Notes under the pieces: generated by a model
Database searches by the model: none
What the model saw: the letters and a program-made list of their open reading frames with translations, nothing else
Told to the model about the DNA's origin: nothing
Translations under genes and position numbers: made by a program
Part shown: in pieces, positions 27,526 through 35,021 of the stretch
Position numbering within the stretch: the stretch's first letter is position 1
Layout: each line of letters begins with the position of its first letter
Assembly (NCBI GenBank): GCA_018127085.1
Contig: CM030720.1
Location: 124,001 to 188,000 of the forward strand
Length of the DNA: 64,000 nt
Reading direction: 5' to 3'
From: Pneumocystis sp. 'macacae'
Lineage: Eukaryota; Ascomycota; Pneumocystomycetes; Pneumocystales; Pneumocystaceae

Positions 27526-29743
27526 ATGAATCAAGAGACATTTACCTCACATCGGCGAAAAACTCTTGGTGTTATTGAGAATCAATCGTATTCTCAGATT
27601 CCACAGCCATCGTCCGTGATGAAGAAGGTTATAGGGATTCGTGGACAAGCTGTGGGTTCAGATGGATTGAATGGGCAAGTAGGGTCTTTGGCTGGCCAGA
27701 ATAGGGCGTTTCAACGCAGTTCTAGTAGTGGAAATTTTGTAGAAGGCATACATACGGCAAATGGTATGCAAAAAGATACTTTTCGAAGTTCAAGACAAAG
27801 TCTTGCACCGTCTAGGTAATTGTATTTAAAAGTGAATTCGAAAGTATCTGAATTGTTTAAGTACGCGTCGATCGAGTGTCTATACATCTGGACGTCCCTC
27901 TAATATTGGTTTTCTTTCACAAGTAGCCTCTCAGGTGCCATCAAAGGATCCACGCCCAATTCGCGATAAACAGTATCAATTAATGTGTATACATTCCATT
28001 TTAGCATATCTTTCGAATTCAGGATTCCCACAGGTTTTAACTCAGAAAAGTCTTCAGCAGCCTACACAAAAAGATTTTATGACGATTTTTAAATGGTTGT
28101 ATCATAGATTGGATCCGAATTATCAGTTTGTTAAGAAAATGGATGACGAGGTGATAATCTGTATAAAAAATTTGAAGTTTGTTTTTTGTTTTATGATGGA
28201 TATTTTGTTAATGGATTGAAGATATCCTTTTGCTGATCAGATTTCGCGATCACAACTCATAGCAGTTGGATCTCCGCATTCATGGCCTTCGATGTTATCA
28301 ATGTTGCATTGGATGGTAGAGATGATTTCGGTTTGTTAAATTACTTTTTAGGAAGAAAGCTGAGTATGAAAAGTGTACTGAGAAATTAATTAATAAGGAA
28401 ATTGATGTTGATGATAATAATGATAATGATGCCGAAAAAATATTTTTTGATTATCTTACAAAAGCATATCGTGTTTTTTTGTCTGGAGATGATGATTTCA
28501 GTGAAATGGAAAAAGAACTTGAACAGGAGTTTGACAAACGTAATGAAGAAATTCTTTCAGTAATTGAACATTTGGAAAAAGAGAATGAAAATCTTTCGGA
28601 GAATATAAAAAATATAGCAGAGTCTATGTCGTCTGTTGAAATATTGGATAGAGAGCGAAAAGTTTTGCAATCTGACAAGGATAAATTTAATCAATATATT
28701 CAATATCTTGAAAATAAAAAGAAGAAATTTATAGATTTGAATGCCAGACTTAAAAATGAACTTTTTAATAAGGAAAAAGAGCTGTCTCAGCTTACCATTG
28801 AAAAATCTGAATTACAAACTCAAGTTGATGCGCAACCTATTTCACCTGCGGATGTGGATAGAATGACTGCAGAGCGTGAATCTTTAGTGAAAAACTTAGA
28901 GATTGTTACTGGGAAAATGGAAGAATCAAGCAAACAAACATTTGAAAAAGAAATCCTTGCACAAAAGAAAATAGATTCTTTAGAAAAACTTATTGCAAAT
29001 TATAACTCTCTTGGCTATAAAATTGGTATTATTCCAGAAACAGCTCCTTACGCGAATAATGTGTCTTTTGAATTGGATTTCATTAATCCTTCTGTCAGTC
29101 ATGGAAATATCCGTCCTGATCAACTCGTTAATCGTGATTTGAAACATGATATACGGCCTAGACTTCAAAAGCTAAGGCAGGACCTTGGGTCTAGGCTTCA
29201 TCGGGAGCAGGACGAGGCCATTCAGCTCCAAGAGGTCCTTGATAAAGTCTGTGAGGGATTATTAGATGCACGTGATGAACTCGATGTTTTGCAAGCAAAA
29301 GTGAGCGTGACCATTGAGCAGTATAATGAGGTGAAAGATGTAATACTGCTGGCTGCTTGTCTGCCTCTTGTCTTTCTGACCCCATATAGAACATGCTGGC
29401 AGAGAATTCTGTAAGCAATACGGAAATTGAGAAACTCGAAAGAGATCTGCAGCAAATGAAAATTACTGCACAGAATGGCTTTCTCCAGCTCGAGCAACGG
29501 TCCCAGTCCGTCAGCATAGAGTATCTATATATCCATCCTAGTACTGCTTGCTAACTTGTTTCCAGGTACGACCAGCTAGTTCACGCAACAAATAGCTTGA
29601 AGGAAGACCTTTACCGTGAAGTTATACGGATGCTGGACGAAGTCATTAGGTTCAAGCTTCATATCCAGACTTCCCTCGAGTCTCTCGAAAACGATGTTGT
29701 TTTGGAAAACGAAAATTGCGACCCAGATGACACCGAGTCGTGA
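27526..29743 (+). CDS. NDC80: Kinetochore protein Ndc80 (HEC1)
   Basis: Ndc80 is the microtubule-binding subunit of the Ndc80 kinetochore complex. The basic, Ser-rich N-terminal tail contains SHRRKTLGV, then the calponin-homology domain: DPRPIRDKQYQLMCIHSIL, LTQKSLQQPTQKDFMTIFKW, LYHRLDPNYQFVKKMDDE, YPFADQISRSQLIAVGSPHS, WPSMLSMLHWMVEM. A long coiled coil follows (28480-29350), then a C-terminal segment ending LENENCDPDDTES. About 640-650 residues, as in other fungi. The intron before YPFADQ is best placed at about 28179-28223 (45 nt). The next intron near 28332 seems to be only 25 nt. From about 29150 onward the coding sequence becomes markedly more G+C-rich, and codon choice changes with it. 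Confidence 0.92.
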
Positions 29744-30273
29744 AAATTGTCTATTTGCTGTTTTGCATATTTTGCATTTTTTGCTTCCGGCCCTGTCTCC
29801 AATCGCTGTATGAGTAAGAAATAACACGCATTCTTTCCTTAACACTCATTGTTTTTCCTCTATCTACACACATCCATCGCCATCCCACCATTGTCCACGA
29901 ACACTGTGTCTGCAGACTGCTGCCCATGCATCCTGCCCTGCAGACCCACATTCCCCCTGCACAATTCACCCCATTCTGTCTCTCACTGACTCCTTTCCCT
30001 CTGTCCATCCTTTGTTTTCAATATCCCGGCAAATAATTAGGTCTAAACCCTCGTCGAGACTATATAAAGACCGCCACCTCCCCCACAACGAAGATTTTGG
30101 ACTGCAAACTGGAGAGACTGTTTGGTCAGTACTGAGACTGTCAGGGCTGCTGGCACAACTGCTGTCTTGAAGGCCTTGCTCCTGGAGGTTGTGGATTGAG
30201 TCCTTGGCTGGAGTCCAGATCGACAGCGGATTTCGACTGACTTCCTCCCGGCTCCGCTCGCCGCACTGGGGAA
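29744..30273. other. Intergenic NDC80 / TBP with TBP promoter and leader
   Basis: This spacer lies on the left shoulder of the G+C-rich island and is C-rich on the + strand from about 29860. It contains the NDC80 3' flank, a TATA box at 30061-30069 and about 200 bp of probable TBP leader. No additional gene is supported; the minus-strand open frames here lack family features and sit in G+C-rich sequence where long open frames arise by chance. Confidence 0.55.
30061..30069 (+). promoter_or_regulatory. Consensus TATA box upstream of the TBP gene
   Basis: TATATAAAG lies about 205 bp upstream of the TBP start codon in otherwise G+C-rich sequence, so it stands out. Placement fits a TATA element with a leader of about 150-180 nt. 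Function is inferred. Confidence 0.5.
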
Positions 30274-31308
30274 ATGCAGAATCCGCTTGCTGTTCCGCTC
30301 TCGGCGGTCGAGGCTGCGTCCTTCATGGCCCCCTCGTCGCTCTCTTTTCCCTCGAGTCACGTCCTCATGTCTGGTGCTGTCTACCCCCCCGTCCACGACG
30401 ACAAGAGGCCTTCTGCCCCCCCTCCCTCCTCTCCTGCCCCCTTCACCGGCATCTCTGGCATCGTCCCGACGCTCCAGTGAGTCCTCGCGCCTCCTCTCCC
30501 CTGCTTATCTCCAAGAAACATCGTCGCCACCGTCAATCTTGACTGTCGTCTCGACCTCAAGACGATTGCCCTCCATGCCCGCAACGCCGAGTACAACCCT
30601 AAGGTTCGCGCCCAGCCCTAGCCCCTCCTGCCCTAGCCCTCTCTTCAACCCTTCCCTAGCCCTCGTCTTCCTGTCCCAACCCTAACCCTTCCCCTACCCT
30701 GTCTCACACAGCCCTACCCCACCCCTAGCCCCGCCGCACCCTAATCCTGCTTCGTTCCGCCTGCTGACCGCTCAGAGGTTCGCCGCCGTCATCATGCGCA
30801 TCCGCGAGCCCAAGACCACCGCACTCATCTTTGCGTCGGGCAAAATGGTCGTCACCGGCGCCAAGTCCGAGGACGACTCCAAGCTTGCCTCCCGCAAATA
30901 CGCCCGCATCATCCAGAAGCTCGGCTTCAACGCCAAGTTCACCGACTTCAAGATCCAGAACATCGTCGGCTCCTGCGACGTCCGCTTCCCCATCCGCCTC
31001 GAGGGCCTCGCCTACTCCCACGGCACCTTTTCCTCGGTACGTCCTCCACCGCCCTACCCTAACCCTATCCCTTGCCCTACCCCAGCCCTAACCTGCACAG
31101 TACGAGCCCGAGCTCTTCCCCGGCCTCATCTACCGCATGGTCAAACCCAAGATTGTCCTGCTCATCTTTGTCTCAGGCAAGATTGTCCTCACCGGTGCAA
31201 AGGTCCGCGAGGAAATCTACCAGGCCTTTGAGGTATGTGTCTGTGCCCCTGCGCAGCTGACGCCAGGCAATCTACCCCGTCCTCAACGAGTTCCGCAAGA
31301 GCTCCTGA
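30274..31308 (+). CDS. SPT15: TATA-box-binding protein (TBP)
   Basis: TBP nucleates transcription initiation by all three nuclear RNA polymerases. Five exons with introns at 30478-30516, 30604-30775, 31037-31100 and 31233-31266 sum to exactly 242 codons (241 residues). The N-terminal 65 residues are Pro/Ser-rich and variable. The core has both direct repeats: [58 protein letters not shown], then [20 protein letters not shown] and [20 protein letters not shown], ending [11 protein letters not shown]. Codons end mostly in C, unlike the A/T-ending codons of genes outside the island. ERG9 begins only 54 nt downstream on the same strand. Identity is unambiguous. Confidence 0.97.
30604..30775 (+). 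repeat. TBP intron 2 built from degenerate CCCTA/CCCTAA telomere-like words
   Basis: This 172-nt intron contains about eight CCCTA words (CCCTAG, CCCTAA, CCCTAC variants) and a CCAACCCTAACCCTTCCCCT core. The octamer AGGTTCGC occurs at 30602-30609 and again at 30776-30783, so it straddles the donor junction and repeats right after the acceptor. The exon just before it reads AACCCTAAG. TTAGGG is the usual telomere repeat of filamentous ascomycetes and, to my knowledge, of Pneumocystis. Confidence 0.7.
31037..31100 (+). repeat. TBP intron 3 with CCCTAACCCTA telomere-like core
   Basis: This 64-nt intron has five CCCTA words, including an uninterrupted ACCCTAACCCTA stretch near 31056-31070. It shares the C-rich word composition of intron 2 although the two are separated by an ordinary exon. 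Confidence 0.65.
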
Positions 31309-31362
31309 TGTACATAGCAACAGGTGTCCCGTCATAAGACCCCGTGTGTGCGCCCCGTCCGC

Positions 31363-32746
31363 ATGGCGTGGACCTGGCTCGGCGAGCTGTATGCGGCGTG
31401 TCTGCGCATGTGGGGCGTGCGCCCTACACACGCCCCGCCAGCAGCGCGCCAGCGCTGTGCAGCGCTGCTTGCAGCAACAAGCCGCAGCTTCATGCGTGTC
31501 ATCCAGGAGCTGCCGCATCCGCTGCGCGACGCGGTATGTATGCGGTCTCGGCAGCACTGACCGCAGATCACGGTCTTCTATCTGGTCCTGCGGGGCCTGG
31601 ACACGGTCGAGGACGACATGGCGCTGGCAGCAGAGCGCAAGGGGGCGCTGCTGCGCGGGTTCCATGCACAGCTGGCAACACGCGGGTGGCGGCTGACAGA
31701 GGGTATGTGGGGCAGCAGGCGGGCTGACAGGCAGTGGGTGCGCGCGACAGGGCACTGCTGGCGAACTTCGACGCAGTCATCGACGAGCTGGCAGCACTGC
31801 CAGCAGGCGCACAGGACGTCATCCGGTCGGTGACACGGACAATGGGGGCGGGGATGGCGGGGTTTGCAGAGCGCGGGGGACACATCGAGACAGTCGACGC
31901 ATACAACGAGTACTGCTACTATGTGGCGGGGCTGGTGGGACAGGGGCTGACGCAGCTGTTTGTCGAGATGGGGGGAGAGGCAGGCGACAGACAGGTCCTG
32001 GAGGACGAGGCAGTGACAATGGGGCTGTTTCTGCAGAAAATCAACATCATCCGCGACTGCTGGGAAGACTTTGGGGAGCACCGGGTCTTCTGGCCGCGGG
32101 AGATATGGGGCAAGTATGCGGACGACTATGGGGCGTTGCTGGGGGGGCGCGGGGGAGAGCAGGTGGGTGGTTGCCGCGGCAACGGGGCTGACGACAGGGC
32201 CTTGCCTGTGTGTCGGAGATGGTTGCGGATGCGCTGGGGCATGTGCCGGGATGCCTGGCGTACCTGTGGAGCATTGAGGATGGGGCGGTGCTGCGGTTCT
32301 GTGCGGTGCCGCAGGCGATGGCGATTGCGACGCTGGCGCTGGTTTTCCGGAACGGAGAGGTGCTGCGGCGGAATGTGAAGATCCGGCGGGCGGAGGCATA
32401 CCAGATCATGGCGGGGGTGCGGGACAGGGAGGGGGTGTGCAGGGTTTTCCAGAAGTATGTGCGGGAGATCCACCGGAAGAATGTGGCGGGGGACCCGAAC
32501 TTTGTGCGGGTGAGTGTGGCGTGTGGGCGGATTGAGCAGTGGATTGGGGGAGTGTGTGGGGGGCGGGGGGCGGGTGTTTGTGTGGGGGAGGCGTGGCCGC
32601 TGTTTGTGCTGGCGGCGGCGGTTGTGGGGGCGGTGGGGCTGCTGATGGGGTACACCGCGTATCTGTTTGGGGCGCGGTGGGACCTGGCGGAGCTGTGGGG
32701 CGGCTCTGCCGCGACACGCCCGCTGCGGGCAAAGCCCGAGCTCTAA
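31363..32746 (+). CDS. ERG9: Squalene synthase (farnesyl-diphosphate farnesyltransferase)
   Basis: This ER enzyme condenses two farnesyl diphosphates to squalene, the first committed step to sterols. Four exons (introns 31533-31565, 31702-31733 and 32162-32196, 32-35 nt) sum to exactly 428 codons. Motifs in order: TSRSFMRVIQELPHPLRDA, FYLVLRGLDTVEDDM (first Asp-rich site), GARDRALLANFD, YNEYCYYVAGLVGQGLTQLF, and LQKINIIRDCWEDFGEHRVF (second Asp-rich site), WPREIWGKYADDY, then LACVSEMVADAL and FCAVPQAMAIATLAL. A C-terminal hydrophobic segment, PLFVLAAAVVGAVGLLMGYT, fits the tail anchor. Codons are overwhelmingly G-ending (GCG, CTG, GTG), giving many Ala/Gly/Val/Arg residues outside the core. 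It lies 54 nt after TBP and 86 nt before CAC2. Catalytic residues are intact. Confidence 0.93.
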
Positions 32747-32832
32747 TAGACTCTTGCTCAGTAGTGTGTTTCCATGGCAACCGTTGCCGGGCAGCCGCGC
32801 GGGCAAAGCCGCCTGGGCCGTTGGGGGCGGCG

Positions 32833-35021
32833 ATGCGGGCGTCGGTTGTGCAGATCCACTGGCACGCGGAGACGGCGTCGATCTACTCGGCGGACTTTGA
32901 GCCGTGTGTGCAGGGGCGGCTTGCGACGGCGGGCGGCGACGGCAGTGTGCGGGTGTGTGGGCAGCGCCGCATGTGGCGCGCACTGTGCATGTCCCCTGTA
33001 TGCGTGCATGCAGTGCATACACACGCATACACTGCGCATACAGCGCGCATACAGCGTGCGCACGGTGCAGCGGCGTGTGCATGATGGGGCGCACAGGCGG
33101 TCTTGCTTGGTGCAGCTGATCTGGACAGATATGGCGTGTGGTGCGCTCGCTGGGTGCAGACTTGGGCCAGCCGCTGCGCGTTGTATATCTCTCGACGCTT
33201 TCAAAGCACACGCAAGCGGTCAATGTTGTCCGGTTCAGTCCGCAAGGTATGGGTGATGGGGCAGTGGTGTCTGTTTTGCAGATATGGTCTTGCAATTGGT
33301 GTTCTGAAGGCCACTAAGGCTAAGTTTTAGTCGTGGTTTTCAAGGCTGCTTTTCAGGGCTTTGGGTCTGCACGTCAGCAGTGTTATTTGCAGCACTTTTC
33401 TGTCTGCTTTTTGCTTTTGCTTTGGTTCTCGTTTTTCTTGGCAGAGAATATTGATGTTTTGGCAGGTGGAAAACTGGCATCGGGCGGCGATGATGGATAT
33501 GTGTTTATATGGGTTCCGGCAGATAGCACGCAGCTTCCTGTTTGCTCGGTCGATGGAGATGTCTTGGACAAGGAAACATGGCGAATACTGCGGTGCTGCC
33601 GCTCTGCAGGAGCGGAAATTTATGACTTGGCATGGTCTCCGGATTCATTATATCTTTTGACAGGCTCGATGGACCATATTGCGCGTATTTATACTGTTAG
33701 TGAGGGTATTGGCACTTTTGTTGTCCTTTTTGGCAAACGATTTTAGGACAGTGTATTTACCAGTTGACGGAACATGACCATTATATTCAGGGTGTAGCAT
33801 GGGATCCCTTAAACATGTATTTGGCAACGACAGGGAGCGATAGGACATTGCAGTTGTATCGTGTGGAAACAACAGCAGGTCTCCAGGTGACGCCGTATGC
33901 GTCTTTTTCGCGTATTGAGCTTCCAGGTGCTGTTGGTTCGTATCATAATGAAACATTGTTGTCTTTTTTCCGACGGCTGAGTTTTACACCTGATGGTAGT
34001 TTGCTCTTGGTGCCTGCAGGACAGTATCGCAAGGTTGGCGAGTCAGATGAAATGCTTCATACTGTATATATTTATACGCGAGCAGGATTAACTCAGTAGG
34101 TTTGTTCTGAATTATTGTGGTTTTTATGAATACTAGATCCCCTGTTGCACATGTTTCTGGTTATAAACGTCCGGCCATTGCTATTTCTTGTTCTCCGAAG
34201 TATTATACACTGAGAAATATTTCTCAAGCATTAAATATGGTTGGAAACAATACTTTGGTGCCATCTTCACATGAAAAAACAGATAGTGTAGTTTCTGGCT
34301 TGGTTTTAGAATCGGATTTGGATTCTGTCTTGGGTGTAAGTTCGAATACTGTTTTCGATGGTTCTTCGGATCTTTCTTTTGACGATAGTATTCCCGATGG
34401 TGCATTGCATGCTACTTCATGCATTTCTTTATCTAATGTTAGTTCAAACGCATTATCTTGTACCTTTTCGCTGCTTTATCGAATGATCTATGCTGTTGCA
34501 ACACAAGATACTGTTGTATTGTATGATACTCAGCAAGCAACACCTCTTGGTGTATTAACTAATCTTCATTATGCAACATTAACTGATCTTGCTTGGTAAG
34601 AAGATTGTATTTTTATTCTCGTTATGTTAAATGTTTTCATAGGTCTTTTGATGGGAATGCATTGCTTATGACGTCCACTGATGGGTTCTGTTCAATCGTA
34701 ATGTTTGATGAAAATGAGCTTGGTGAAGAATACACAGGTCCATGTCCATCATTGCATGTCGACAAATCTGTGGCATTGAAGGATGTTTTAAGAACATCCG
34801 TGGACTGTTCAAATTCAATGGTCGATAATTTCTGTCATTTAACTACTGAAACACGCTCTATTGAAAAAGGCAATTCTTTAAATGATGTAGAGAAGAATCC
34901 GTCTTTGACAGGTATTTTATTTCGTTTAGAATAACCCTTCTGAGACTCCACAGTGACAAGTGTTAAGGACAAAAAGAAACGAATAGTGCCGACATTGGTT
35001 CAGGTCTTTGAGAGAAAATAA
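32833..35021 (+). CDS. CAC2: Chromatin assembly factor 1 subunit B (CAF-1 p60, Cac2/Pcf2), WD40
   Basis: This WD40 subunit of CAF-1 helps deposit H3-H4 during DNA replication and repair. Seven exons (introns 32953-33128, 33247-33465, 33706-33746, then 41, 47 and 42 nt) sum to exactly 541 codons. Motifs: IHWHAETASIYSADFEP, GRLATAGGDGSVRIW, YLSTLSKHTQAVNVVRFSPQ, GKLASGGDDGYVFIWVPADS, IYDLAWSPDSLYLLTGSMDH, YIQGVAWDPLNMYLATTGSD, SPVAHVSGYKRPAIAI, and the C-terminal KKKRIVPTLVQVFERK. The first two repeats lie in G+C-rich sequence with unusually long introns; from about 33.8 kb on, the same gene is A+T-rich with ordinary introns. Nearest relatives by motif are fungal Cac2/Pcf2 proteins; HIRA is less likely because of gene length and the B-subunit tail. 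Confidence 0.88.
32996..33090 (+). repeat. Imperfect GCATACA-type tandem repeat in CAC2 intron 1
   Basis: Within the 176-nt first intron the words GCATACA, GCGCATACAGC and TGCATAC recur with alternating purine-pyrimidine TGCG/CGCA context. The copies are imperfect, so this is a decayed or slipping microsatellite rather than a clean array. Confidence 0.6.

What the first reader, a model, noticed from the sequence alone, without database searches (positions are those of the whole stretch)
29150..33800. Gene-crossing G+C-rich island in an A+T-rich genome
Composition rises from the roughly 15-35% G+C typical of the window to about two-thirds G+C in ERG9 (one 60-base line at 32101 counts 40 G+C) and falls back by about 33.8 kb. 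Both edges lie inside conserved genes: the last exons of NDC80 are already shifted, and CAC2 starts G+C-rich and ends A+T-rich. The genes are ordinary fungal orthologues, so foreign DNA is unlikely. A local process must act on the locus itself: GC-biased gene conversion at a recombination hotspot, an origin-linked mutation bias, or a former telomere-proximal position.
Basis: partly seen in the sequence, partly recalled or inferred. Interest (0 to 1): 0.78.

Follow-up and report, generated by a model that had tools for sequence, protein, structure and literature searches.

The report
Mirror-skewed GC islands across Pneumocystis genome
The G+C-rich patch is one of a set of look-alike islands on the chromosomes of an uncultured lung fungus, each C-rich on its left half and G-rich on its right half whatever the gene direction, most simply read as the scars of long-lived DNA-break (recombination) hotspots.

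Summary
G+C rises from 0.28 to about 0.64 between 29.2 and 34.1 kb, in exons, introns and spacers, with edges inside NDC80 and CAC2.

(1) Mirror strand skew: the island is C-rich left of about 31,520 and G-rich right of it, although NDC80, TBP, ERG9 and CAC2 all run on the + strand.

(2) It is not alone. I read ten further internal sites picked by long G/C runs. All 10 show the same size, plateau and C-to-G order; 0 of 478 background centres do. Oriented halves agree within .01 (A .20, C .40, G .21, T .19), with no net A/T skew. Third-codon positions follow the side of the switch, not the gene strand; the sign flips inside one gene.

Transcription, foreign DNA, codon choice and a former telomere are contradicted or unlikely; ordinary replication-origin skew is unlikely. 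A process reaching 2-2.5 kb to each side of a point fits long-lived meiotic double-strand-break hotspots: GC-biased conversion plus a strand-specific repair bias. That step is inferred; no recombination data were available. The species is probably P. macacae. By protein composition, ERG9 of rodent Pneumocystis lacks the footprint.

The parts
29198..34129 (.). whole G+C island (500-base G+C above 0.40)
   Evidence: profile
30013..33399 (.). core of the island (500-base G+C above 0.50)
   Evidence: one search finds the same core (30,012-33,399)
30013..31520 (+). left arm, C-rich on the + strand (A .18 C .38 G .22 T .22)
   Evidence: V-shaped cumulative skew p=0.0005, the lowest value 2000 block shuffles can give
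31520..31521 (.). skew switch point (minimum of cumulative G-C), inferred centre of the process; in ERG9 exon 1, 157 bases after its start codon
31520..33399 (+). right arm, G-rich on the + strand (A .16 C .23 G .41 T .20)
27526..29743 (+). NDC80, 660 aa, 5 introns in my model; 3' part inside the left flank (GC3 .26 then .50)
   Evidence: 92% identical to P. jirovecii RU7 NDC80 over 91% of its length, 84% to P. carinii
30274..31308 (+). TATA-binding protein, 241 aa; third positions C .62 G .21
   Evidence: the name rests on reading the sequence, no family search was run on it
31363..32746 (+). ERG9 squalene synthase, 427 aa; third positions right of the switch G .58 C .22
32833..34934 (+). CAC2-like WD40 gene, 532 aa in my model; GC3 .76, .42, .25 along its length
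30604..30775 (+). TBP intron 2 (172 bases), rich in telomere-like CCCTA words together with intron 3 (31037-31100)
   Evidence: 13 CCCTA in the two introns, 2.7 expected in 2000 dinucleotide shuffles, p=0.0005

Best explanation
The window island is one of several dozen fixed sites in this genome at which DNA double-strand breaks, most likely meiotic Spo11 breaks in promoter-like chromatin, have been made and repaired from the homologue for a very long time. Each break is resected 1-2.5 kb to both sides; repair within that reach favours G and C over A and T (GC-biased gene conversion) and lifts the local equilibrium from 0.28 to about 0.65 G+C. In addition the repair is strand-specific: on the strand that forms the 3' single-stranded tail (the + strand on the left, the - strand on the right) C is favoured over G. 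My preferred cause is that heteroduplex mismatches with a G in the tail strand are corrected to the donor while those with a C (above all C/C, which escapes canonical mismatch repair) persist. Shown: eleven islands, their mirror skew, its independence of gene strand, the lack of net A/T skew. Inferred: the total number of islands, that the centre is a break site, that the breaks are meiotic, and the mismatch rule.
For: Same structure at 11 of 11 islands read: the window plus all 10 internal, non-homopolymer sites listed (lists partly capped), fetched. Cores 3.4-5.9 kb, plateau about .60-.70, V-shaped cumulative skew p=0.0005 each, the lowest attainable. Aligned on the switch, 250-base bins are negative in 11/11 from -1000 to -1 and in 11/11 from -2000 to -1251, positive in 11/11 from 0 to +999 (bins next to the switch are favoured by how the switch is defined, the distant ones are not). 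Left halves and reverse-complemented right halves: C .402/.405, G .210/.203, A .194/.200, T .194/.193. Background: 0 of 478 centres has such a switch in either order. Third positions with GC3>0.5: left 15 of 17 stretches C-rich (1 zero, 1 positive), right 13 of 13 G-rich, on both gene strands; the UCH gene of L022 turns from -.32 to +.38 within one reading frame. Reach per side is like the 1-2 kb resection at human hotspots (PMC7615360, passages). A Spo11-family match above cut-off is in the genome; meiosis genes are transcribed in three Pneumocystis species (PMC4764891, passages). C/C mismatches 'frequently escape canonical MMR' and S. pombe has a special path for them (PMC4154643, passages). 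Fission-yeast hotspots are sparse, about 65 kb apart (PMC2580034, passages). An equilibrium model with C favoured and G disfavoured reproduces all four frequencies (rmse .0014).
Against: No recombination, polymorphism or read data were available. The mismatch rule is not unique: a G-to-C mutation bias on the tail strand fits equally well in the model, and a bias in C/G exchange alone predicts some A/T skew (-.05 to -.12) if transitions are 2-4 times faster than transversions; a bias limited to transitions plus C/G exchange gives +.09. A/T skew cancels over the arms but single bins reach about .1 and alternate in sign; in the window itself T exceeds A on both arms. At human hotspots the tail strand accumulates C>N and A>N mutations, which would give the opposite polarity. 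Two of 17 left stretches do not follow the rule (both within 430 bases of the switch). No shared sequence motif at the centres reached significance.
Confidence: 0.62

Rival explanations
1. Same break hotspots, but the skew is mutational: single-stranded tails left by resection suffer G-to-C changes (for example through oxidised guanine and translesion synthesis), while GC-biased conversion raises G+C.
For: Reproduces the four base frequencies as well as the conversion rule when transitions and transversions occur at similar rates; human hotspots show that tails are mutated strand-specifically (PMC7615360, passages).
Against: In humans the tail strand loses C and A, not G, the opposite sign. 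With transitions 2-4 times faster it predicts an A/T skew of -.05 to -.12 against 0.00 and +.02 seen over the arms.
Confidence: 0.18
2. Replication origins: bidirectional forks leave the leading strand G-rich, so skew turns from negative to positive at the origin.
For: The polarity is that of origins in bacteria and of upward skew jumps in human (recalled); several centres lie at gene starts or between divergent genes.
Against: Skew falls to within about 0.1 beyond 3 kb on both sides instead of running to a terminus; no net A/T skew, which fork asymmetry usually brings (recalled); it does not explain a rise from .28 to .65 G+C; about 45 candidate sites (many more may exist) look too few for 8.27 Mb.
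Confidence: 0.1
3. Transcription: R-loops or transcription-coupled repair at (divergent) promoters give C-rich upstream and G-rich downstream coding strands.
For: In six of ten loci (L017, L018, L019, L020, L024, L026) the genes I could name flank the switch in divergent order (eL42 in L018 and H4 in L017 recognised by eye and placed).
Against: Window genes are all on + yet TBP is C-rich and ERG9 G-rich at third positions; left-arm + genes 5 of 5 C-rich and right-arm - genes 5 of 5 G-rich on the + strand; the AT-rich part of NDC80 has the opposite coding-strand skew (G .20, C .06).
Confidence: 0.03
4. Foreign DNA, contamination or a chimeric assembly.
For: Extreme composition; the ERG9 branch is long (1.01 against .06 in P. 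carinii and P. murina); the two best-scoring ERG9 hits are Brassica records at 38-39% identity.
Against: Conserved fungal genes with introns run across both edges; gradual slopes; tree position in Pneumocystis 100/100, with the Brassica row elsewhere on a branch of 2.46 (20 rows chosen from the 120 listed plus the own copy); ERG9-CAC2 order shared with P. canis; 11 islands of the same form on 8 contigs.
Confidence: 0.02
5. Centromere or kinetochore-bound sites.
For: In P. macacae Mis12 ChIP gave 4-6 peaks per chromosome that 'tend to occur in GC rich regions' (PMC10327204, passages).
Against: CENP-A centromeres of P. murina and P. carinii are one per chromosome and on average 3.9% lower in G+C (same passages); the authors leave open that the extra peaks are artefacts; several islands per contig here.
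Confidence: 0.03

Closest known systems
GC-biased gene conversion at recombination hotspots (mammals; gerbil 'runaway GC' regions)
   Same: Local rise of G+C in all site classes, including third codon positions and introns, with radical protein change (ERG9 GARP/FYMINK 2.31 against .47-.49 in P. carinii and P. murina; R:K 39:7 against 26:33 and 25:32).
   Different: Here the islands are short, stereotyped and strongly strand-asymmetric; gBGC as usually defined is strand-symmetric (recalled). Gerbil papers seen as search listings only.
Strand-asymmetric mutation footprints at human PRDM9 hotspots (Hinch et al., PMC7615360)
   Same: Mirror asymmetry around a central break over about 2 kb per side.
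   Different: Seen as rare mutations, not as standing base composition; the reported sign (C>N, A>N on the forward strand, which is the tail strand to the left) is opposite to the composition here (passages).
Mouse hotspots with a base skew that changes sign at the centre (Smagulova et al. 2011)
   Same: Skew that flips at the hotspot centre.
   Different: Recalled, not read (searches did not list it); as I recall it, an average over many hotspots, whereas here each island shows it alone.
Fission-yeast Rec12 (Spo11) hotspots
   Same: Sparse hotspots, preferentially in large intergenic regions, of a Taphrinomycotina relative, about 65 kb apart (PMC2580034, passages).
   Different: No such G+C islands are mentioned in the passages read; candidate sites here are about 180 kb apart, their number being a lower bound.
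Replication-origin skew jumps (recalled)
   Same: Negative-to-positive GC skew switch.
   Different: Far shorter reach, no net A/T skew, large G+C rise.

Membership tests
gBGC-shaped recombination hotspot | G+C raised in coding, intron and spacer DNA alike | tested here: met
   window; third positions in the ten other loci:
gBGC-shaped recombination hotspot | extent of a few kb, gradual flanks, like conversion/resection tracts | tested here: met
gBGC-shaped recombination hotspot | elevated crossover or conversion rate at the site | not testable with these tools
   no population or tetrad data
gBGC-shaped recombination hotspot | meiotic break machinery encoded | tested here: met
   TP6A_N (Spo11 family) match above cut-off at C12:219,969-220,082, 52.3 bits against 26; no other meiotic gene was searched here
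gBGC-shaped recombination hotspot | strand-symmetric effect (C and G rise alike) | tested here: not met
   C/G ratio about 2 on one side and 1/2 on the other; so plain gBGC is not the whole account
replication origin with fork asymmetry | skew extends along the replicon and includes A/T | tested here: not met
promoter/R-loop skew (CpG-island type) | skew follows the direction of transcription | tested here: not met
horizontally acquired DNA | gene tree places the copy outside the host clade | tested here: not met
   (ERG9 only; TBP not treed)
Pneumocystis regional centromere | one site per chromosome, G+C lower than the genome | tested here: not met
   several G+C-rich sites per contig, G+C far above the genome; the feature is from P. 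murina and P. carinii
Pneumocystis regional centromere | CENP-A occupancy | not testable with these tools
   no ChIP data here

The most novel reading that the evidence does not exclude
A strand-directed form of biased gene conversion: because mismatches carrying C on the invading 3' tail escape repair while those carrying G are corrected to the donor, every long-lived break hotspot writes a C-to-G arrow into the sequence, so break centres could be read from a single genome to within a few hundred bases and hotspots mapped in organisms that cannot be crossed or cultured.
Probability: 0.28. Interest if true: 0.9.

Novelty: new variant of a known kind. Interest (0 to 1): 0.8.

Why it matters
Pneumocystis has no reproducible continuous culture and cannot be crossed, so I know of no recombination map for it. 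If the islands are hotspots, one assembly already gives a map of them, and comparison across species would tell how long hotspots last in a fungus. The mirror skew without net A/T skew is a quantitative constraint on how mismatches are repaired during recombination. Practical points: genes in islands (ERG9, the 3' end of NDC80) evolve oddly and may be mis-annotated, and G+C-rich islands may produce false ChIP peaks such as the unexplained Mis12 peaks.

Tried and rejected
Shared motif at the switch points: GCAGCGC lies within 400 bases of the switch in 11 of 11, but 6% of 150 shuffles give a 7-mer as common (8-mers 3%, 9-mers 31%), so not claimed. Fission-yeast M26/CRE, CCAAT and oligo-C words are not concentrated at the centres. 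LSD1-like gene of island L020: no record named Pneumocystis among the 120 listed of 576 hits, so nothing learnt about conservation. Telomere origin: TBP introns 2 and 3 carry 13 CCCTA words, but the same mirrored structure occurs at all internal islands read, and telomere addition at a central break would give the opposite strand order (inference); kept as an oddity. Single-type mutation biases (C-to-T on the - strand, A-to-G on the new strand, G-to-T) fail in the model because they predict an A/T skew of .18-.22 in size. Structure prediction and fold search were not used; nothing here turns on a fold. No more genome letters could be had after (200 kb), so 11 islands were read, plus a weaker one (C1:54-57.5 kb; G+C about .51, its G-rich part short), out of about 45 candidate sites.
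Full report
What was checked. The island is real. In the window G+C is 0.276 outside it (28 windows of 2 kb, maximum 0.336) and 0.636 at 30,000-33,000; 500-base G+C exceeds 0.40 from 29,198 to 34,129. Exons, introns and spacers all share it. Third-position G+C is 0.26 in NDC80 before 29,150, 0.83 in TBP, 0.80 in ERG9 right of the switch and 0.25 in CAC2 after 34,000. Introns go from 0.24 to 0.61-0.71 and back to 0.23; the three spacers are 0.50, 0.61 and 0.67. So it is a regional effect and not codon choice.

What had been missed, first part. The strand composition flips in the middle. In 200-base bins GC skew is -0.18 to -0.53 over most of the left arm (one bin at 30,101 is +0.05, the bin at 31,301 is -0.04) and +0.07 to +0.60 on the right; the cumulative minimum is at 31,520. 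All four genes lie on the + strand, yet TBP third positions are C .62 G .21 and those of ERG9 right of the switch are C .22 G .58. In the A+T-rich part of NDC80 the coding strand is G-richer (G .20, C .06), so TBP goes against the local coding-strand habit.

What had been missed, second part. The island is one of many. The window is C1:124,001-188,000 of an assembly of 8,274,841 bases in 19 contigs. Searches for runs of G/C letters gave sites away from contig ends on 16 of 19 contigs (the lists were capped at 100 rows of 330 and 219). I took all ten internal, non-homopolymer sites other than the window that searches listed, and read 10 kb around each. All ten have cores of 3.5-5.9 kb with a plateau of about 0.60-0.70, C-rich left and G-rich right. 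With the window that is 11 of 11; each V-shaped cumulative skew has p=0.0005, the lowest that 2000 block shuffles can give. Of 478 overlapping background centres from the window and C1, none has both arms beyond 0.2 in either order. Four further sites that I could not read have a C-rich word before a G-rich word: C3:150.7-152.7 kb, C3:468.8-472.0 kb and C5:318.1-321.3 kb and C10:82.9-84.5 kb; among the listed rows I saw no internal site with the reverse order. A weaker case is at C1:54-57.5 kb (G+C about .51, G-rich part short). Grouping all pattern hits by hand gives about 45 candidate sites (single-word sites and C1:54 kb included, contig ends and plain G or C homopolymers left out). Only the 11 are proven.

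Anatomy. Aligned on the switch, G+C is 0.62-0.68 within 1.25 kb, passes 0.5 at about 2.2 kb left and 2 kb right, and reaches background near 4 kb on the left and 3-3.5 kb on the right. Skew is negative in 11 of 11 in each 250-base bin of the last 1 kb on the left and positive in 11 of 11 in each bin of the first 1 kb on the right. The bins next to the switch are helped by its definition; the bins from -2000 to -1251 are also negative in 11 of 11. Beyond 3 kb skew is within about 0.1. The left halves (A .194 C .402 G .210 T .194) and the reverse-complemented right halves (A .200 C .405 G .203 T .193) agree within .01. Over an arm A and T are equal; only C and G part. In single bins A/T skew reaches about .1 with alternating sign, and in the window alone T exceeds A on both arms.

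Independence of transcription. I scanned 50 of 433 reading frames of 70 or more codons from the ten loci with Pfam, picked by codon-position G+C; 30 had a match. The third positions of 29 of these frames were used (the weak YMR31 match was left out; for H4 I set the limits by eye); parts under 15 codons or beyond 3 kb were dropped in the script. With GC3 above 0.5: left arm 17 stretches, 15 C-rich, 1 zero, 1 positive (both exceptions within 430 bases of the switch); right arm 13 of 13 G-rich. On the left, + genes 5 of 5 and - genes 10 of 12 agree; on the right, + genes 8 of 8 and - genes 5 of 5. Two stretches with low GC3 were left out: MON2-C (left, +.20, against the rule) and eIF4G (right, +.50). 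In L022 a ubiquitin hydrolase gene on the - strand crosses the switch and turns from -.32 to +.38 and +.69. The named genes flank the switch divergently in six of ten loci (L017, L018, L019, L020, L024, L026). In L017 the switch (5011) is at the H4 start codon (5012), in L018 (4834) 78 bases after the eL42 start (4756), in the window 157 bases after the ERG9 start. This suggests promoter-like chromatin at the centre; boundaries of the other genes are not settled.

History. NDC80 is 92% identical to P. jirovecii RU7 and 84% to P. carinii, so the genome is a close relative of P. jirovecii but not RU7; with 8.27 Mb it is probably P. macacae (8.2 Mb; PMC7940399, passages). This naming is inference. 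ERG9 is only 45-47% identical to P. carinii and P. murina over 92-93% of its length; two Brassica records rank first by E-value at 38-39% identity (best 120 of 4,564 hits listed). In a tree of 20 rows it lies firmly inside Pneumocystis with P. canis, on a branch of 1.01 against 0.06 for each rodent species and .44 for P. canis, and it alone fails the composition test; the Brassica row falls elsewhere. Its GARP/FYMINK ratio is 2.31 and R:K 39:7; P. carinii .47 and 26:33, P. murina .49 and 25:32, P. canis .79 and 29:20, S. pombe .54 and 24:31. So at protein level the footprint is absent from the two rodent species, and P. canis is intermediate. In the stretch of NDC80 inside the island identity to P. 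jirovecii drops from .93 to .72, to P. carinii only from .85 to .83. Most of that drop is the tail of the P. jirovecii record, which is an out-of-frame read, open and rich in R, P, S and Q where the same wrong frame here meets three stops. That hints, no more, that the island is also in P. jirovecii, which split from P. macacae about 62 million years ago.

Mechanism. A process symmetric about a point, reaching 2-2.5 kb to each side and acting on opposite strands on the two sides, is what resected double-strand-break repair gives: human hotspots have 1-2 kb of resection per side and strand-asymmetric mutation over the flanking 2 kb (PMC7615360, passages). A Spo11-family match is in the genome. 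GC-biased conversion accounts for the rise in G+C. It does not account for the skew. In an equilibrium model with background 0.28 G+C, the observed four frequencies follow from a strand-symmetric S preference of 1.33 plus a C-over-G preference of 0.67 on the tail strand (rmse .0014). One-type transition biases and G-to-T fail because they force an A/T skew near .2; a bias limited to transitions plus C/G exchange gives .09. A bias confined to C/G exchange, by conversion or by mutation, fits if transitions are not much faster than transversions. The model ignores selection on codons. The sign is opposite to that of the human mutation footprint. It is the sign expected if mismatches with G on the tail are corrected to the donor and those with C persist; C/C is known to escape canonical mismatch repair often, with a special excision path in S. 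pombe (PMC4154643, passages). I hold the break-hotspot reading at 0.62 and the particular mismatch rule at about 0.28.

Compared with what is known. Hotspot G+C peaks, gBGC and gerbil G+C regions are known kinds; mouse hotspots with sign-changing skew are recalled, not read. I found no description of such islands in Pneumocystis: no title or abstract start among the listings (1 paper; 20 of 623; 10 of 10,528; 8) describes them, and the passages seen of the three Pneumocystis genome papers (PMC10327204, PMC4764891, PMC7940399) mention G+C-rich regions only as places of extra Mis12 ChIP peaks. I read none of these papers whole; the library lacks most subscription papers, and supplements could not be opened. 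Hence: new variant of a known kind.

Noticed in passing
window 30604-30775 and 31037-31100; also left arms of L020, L023, L025 and right arm of L026: Degenerate telomere-like CCCTAA words in islands (AACCCTA 27 against 2.8 expected over 22 oriented half-islands, present in 8; CCCTA 81 against TAGGG 7 on the C-rich strand). Unexplained.
   Followed up: partly
window 30604-30775, 32953-33128, 33247-33444: Introns of 172, 176 and 198 bases inside the island, against 32-64 for the other 14 introns of the four genes.
   Followed up: no
islands aligned on the switch: Small A/T skew that alternates along each arm (left: A-rich beyond 1.5 kb, T-rich nearer; right: A-rich near, T-rich beyond 1 kb; up to about .1) and cancels over the arm.
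   Followed up: no
G000 C3:307, C4:553170, C8:480288, C10:472865, C13:6510, C15:374632, C16:10594 and C16:338687: An identical G/C-only word (22-23 bases, either strand) recurs at eight places, near contig ends where the contig length is known: a subtelomeric repeat.
   Followed up: no
L027-L028 (C1:1-14,000): Many 1-kb windows at the left end of contig C1 have G+C above .42 with C-rich skew (-.18 to -.68) and no switch.
   Followed up: no
public record P0121 (P. jirovecii NDC80): The last 38 or so residues appear to be an out-of-frame read after a mis-placed splice site.
   Followed up: partly
public record P0003 (P. canis PCK1_002231): One gene model joins ERG9 and the CAC2-like WD40 gene; here they are separated by 86 bases with stop and start codons.
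   Followed up: no
L017 (C2:196 kb): The divergent histone H3-H4 gene pair sits at the centre of an island; the switch is at the H4 start codon.
   Followed up: partly
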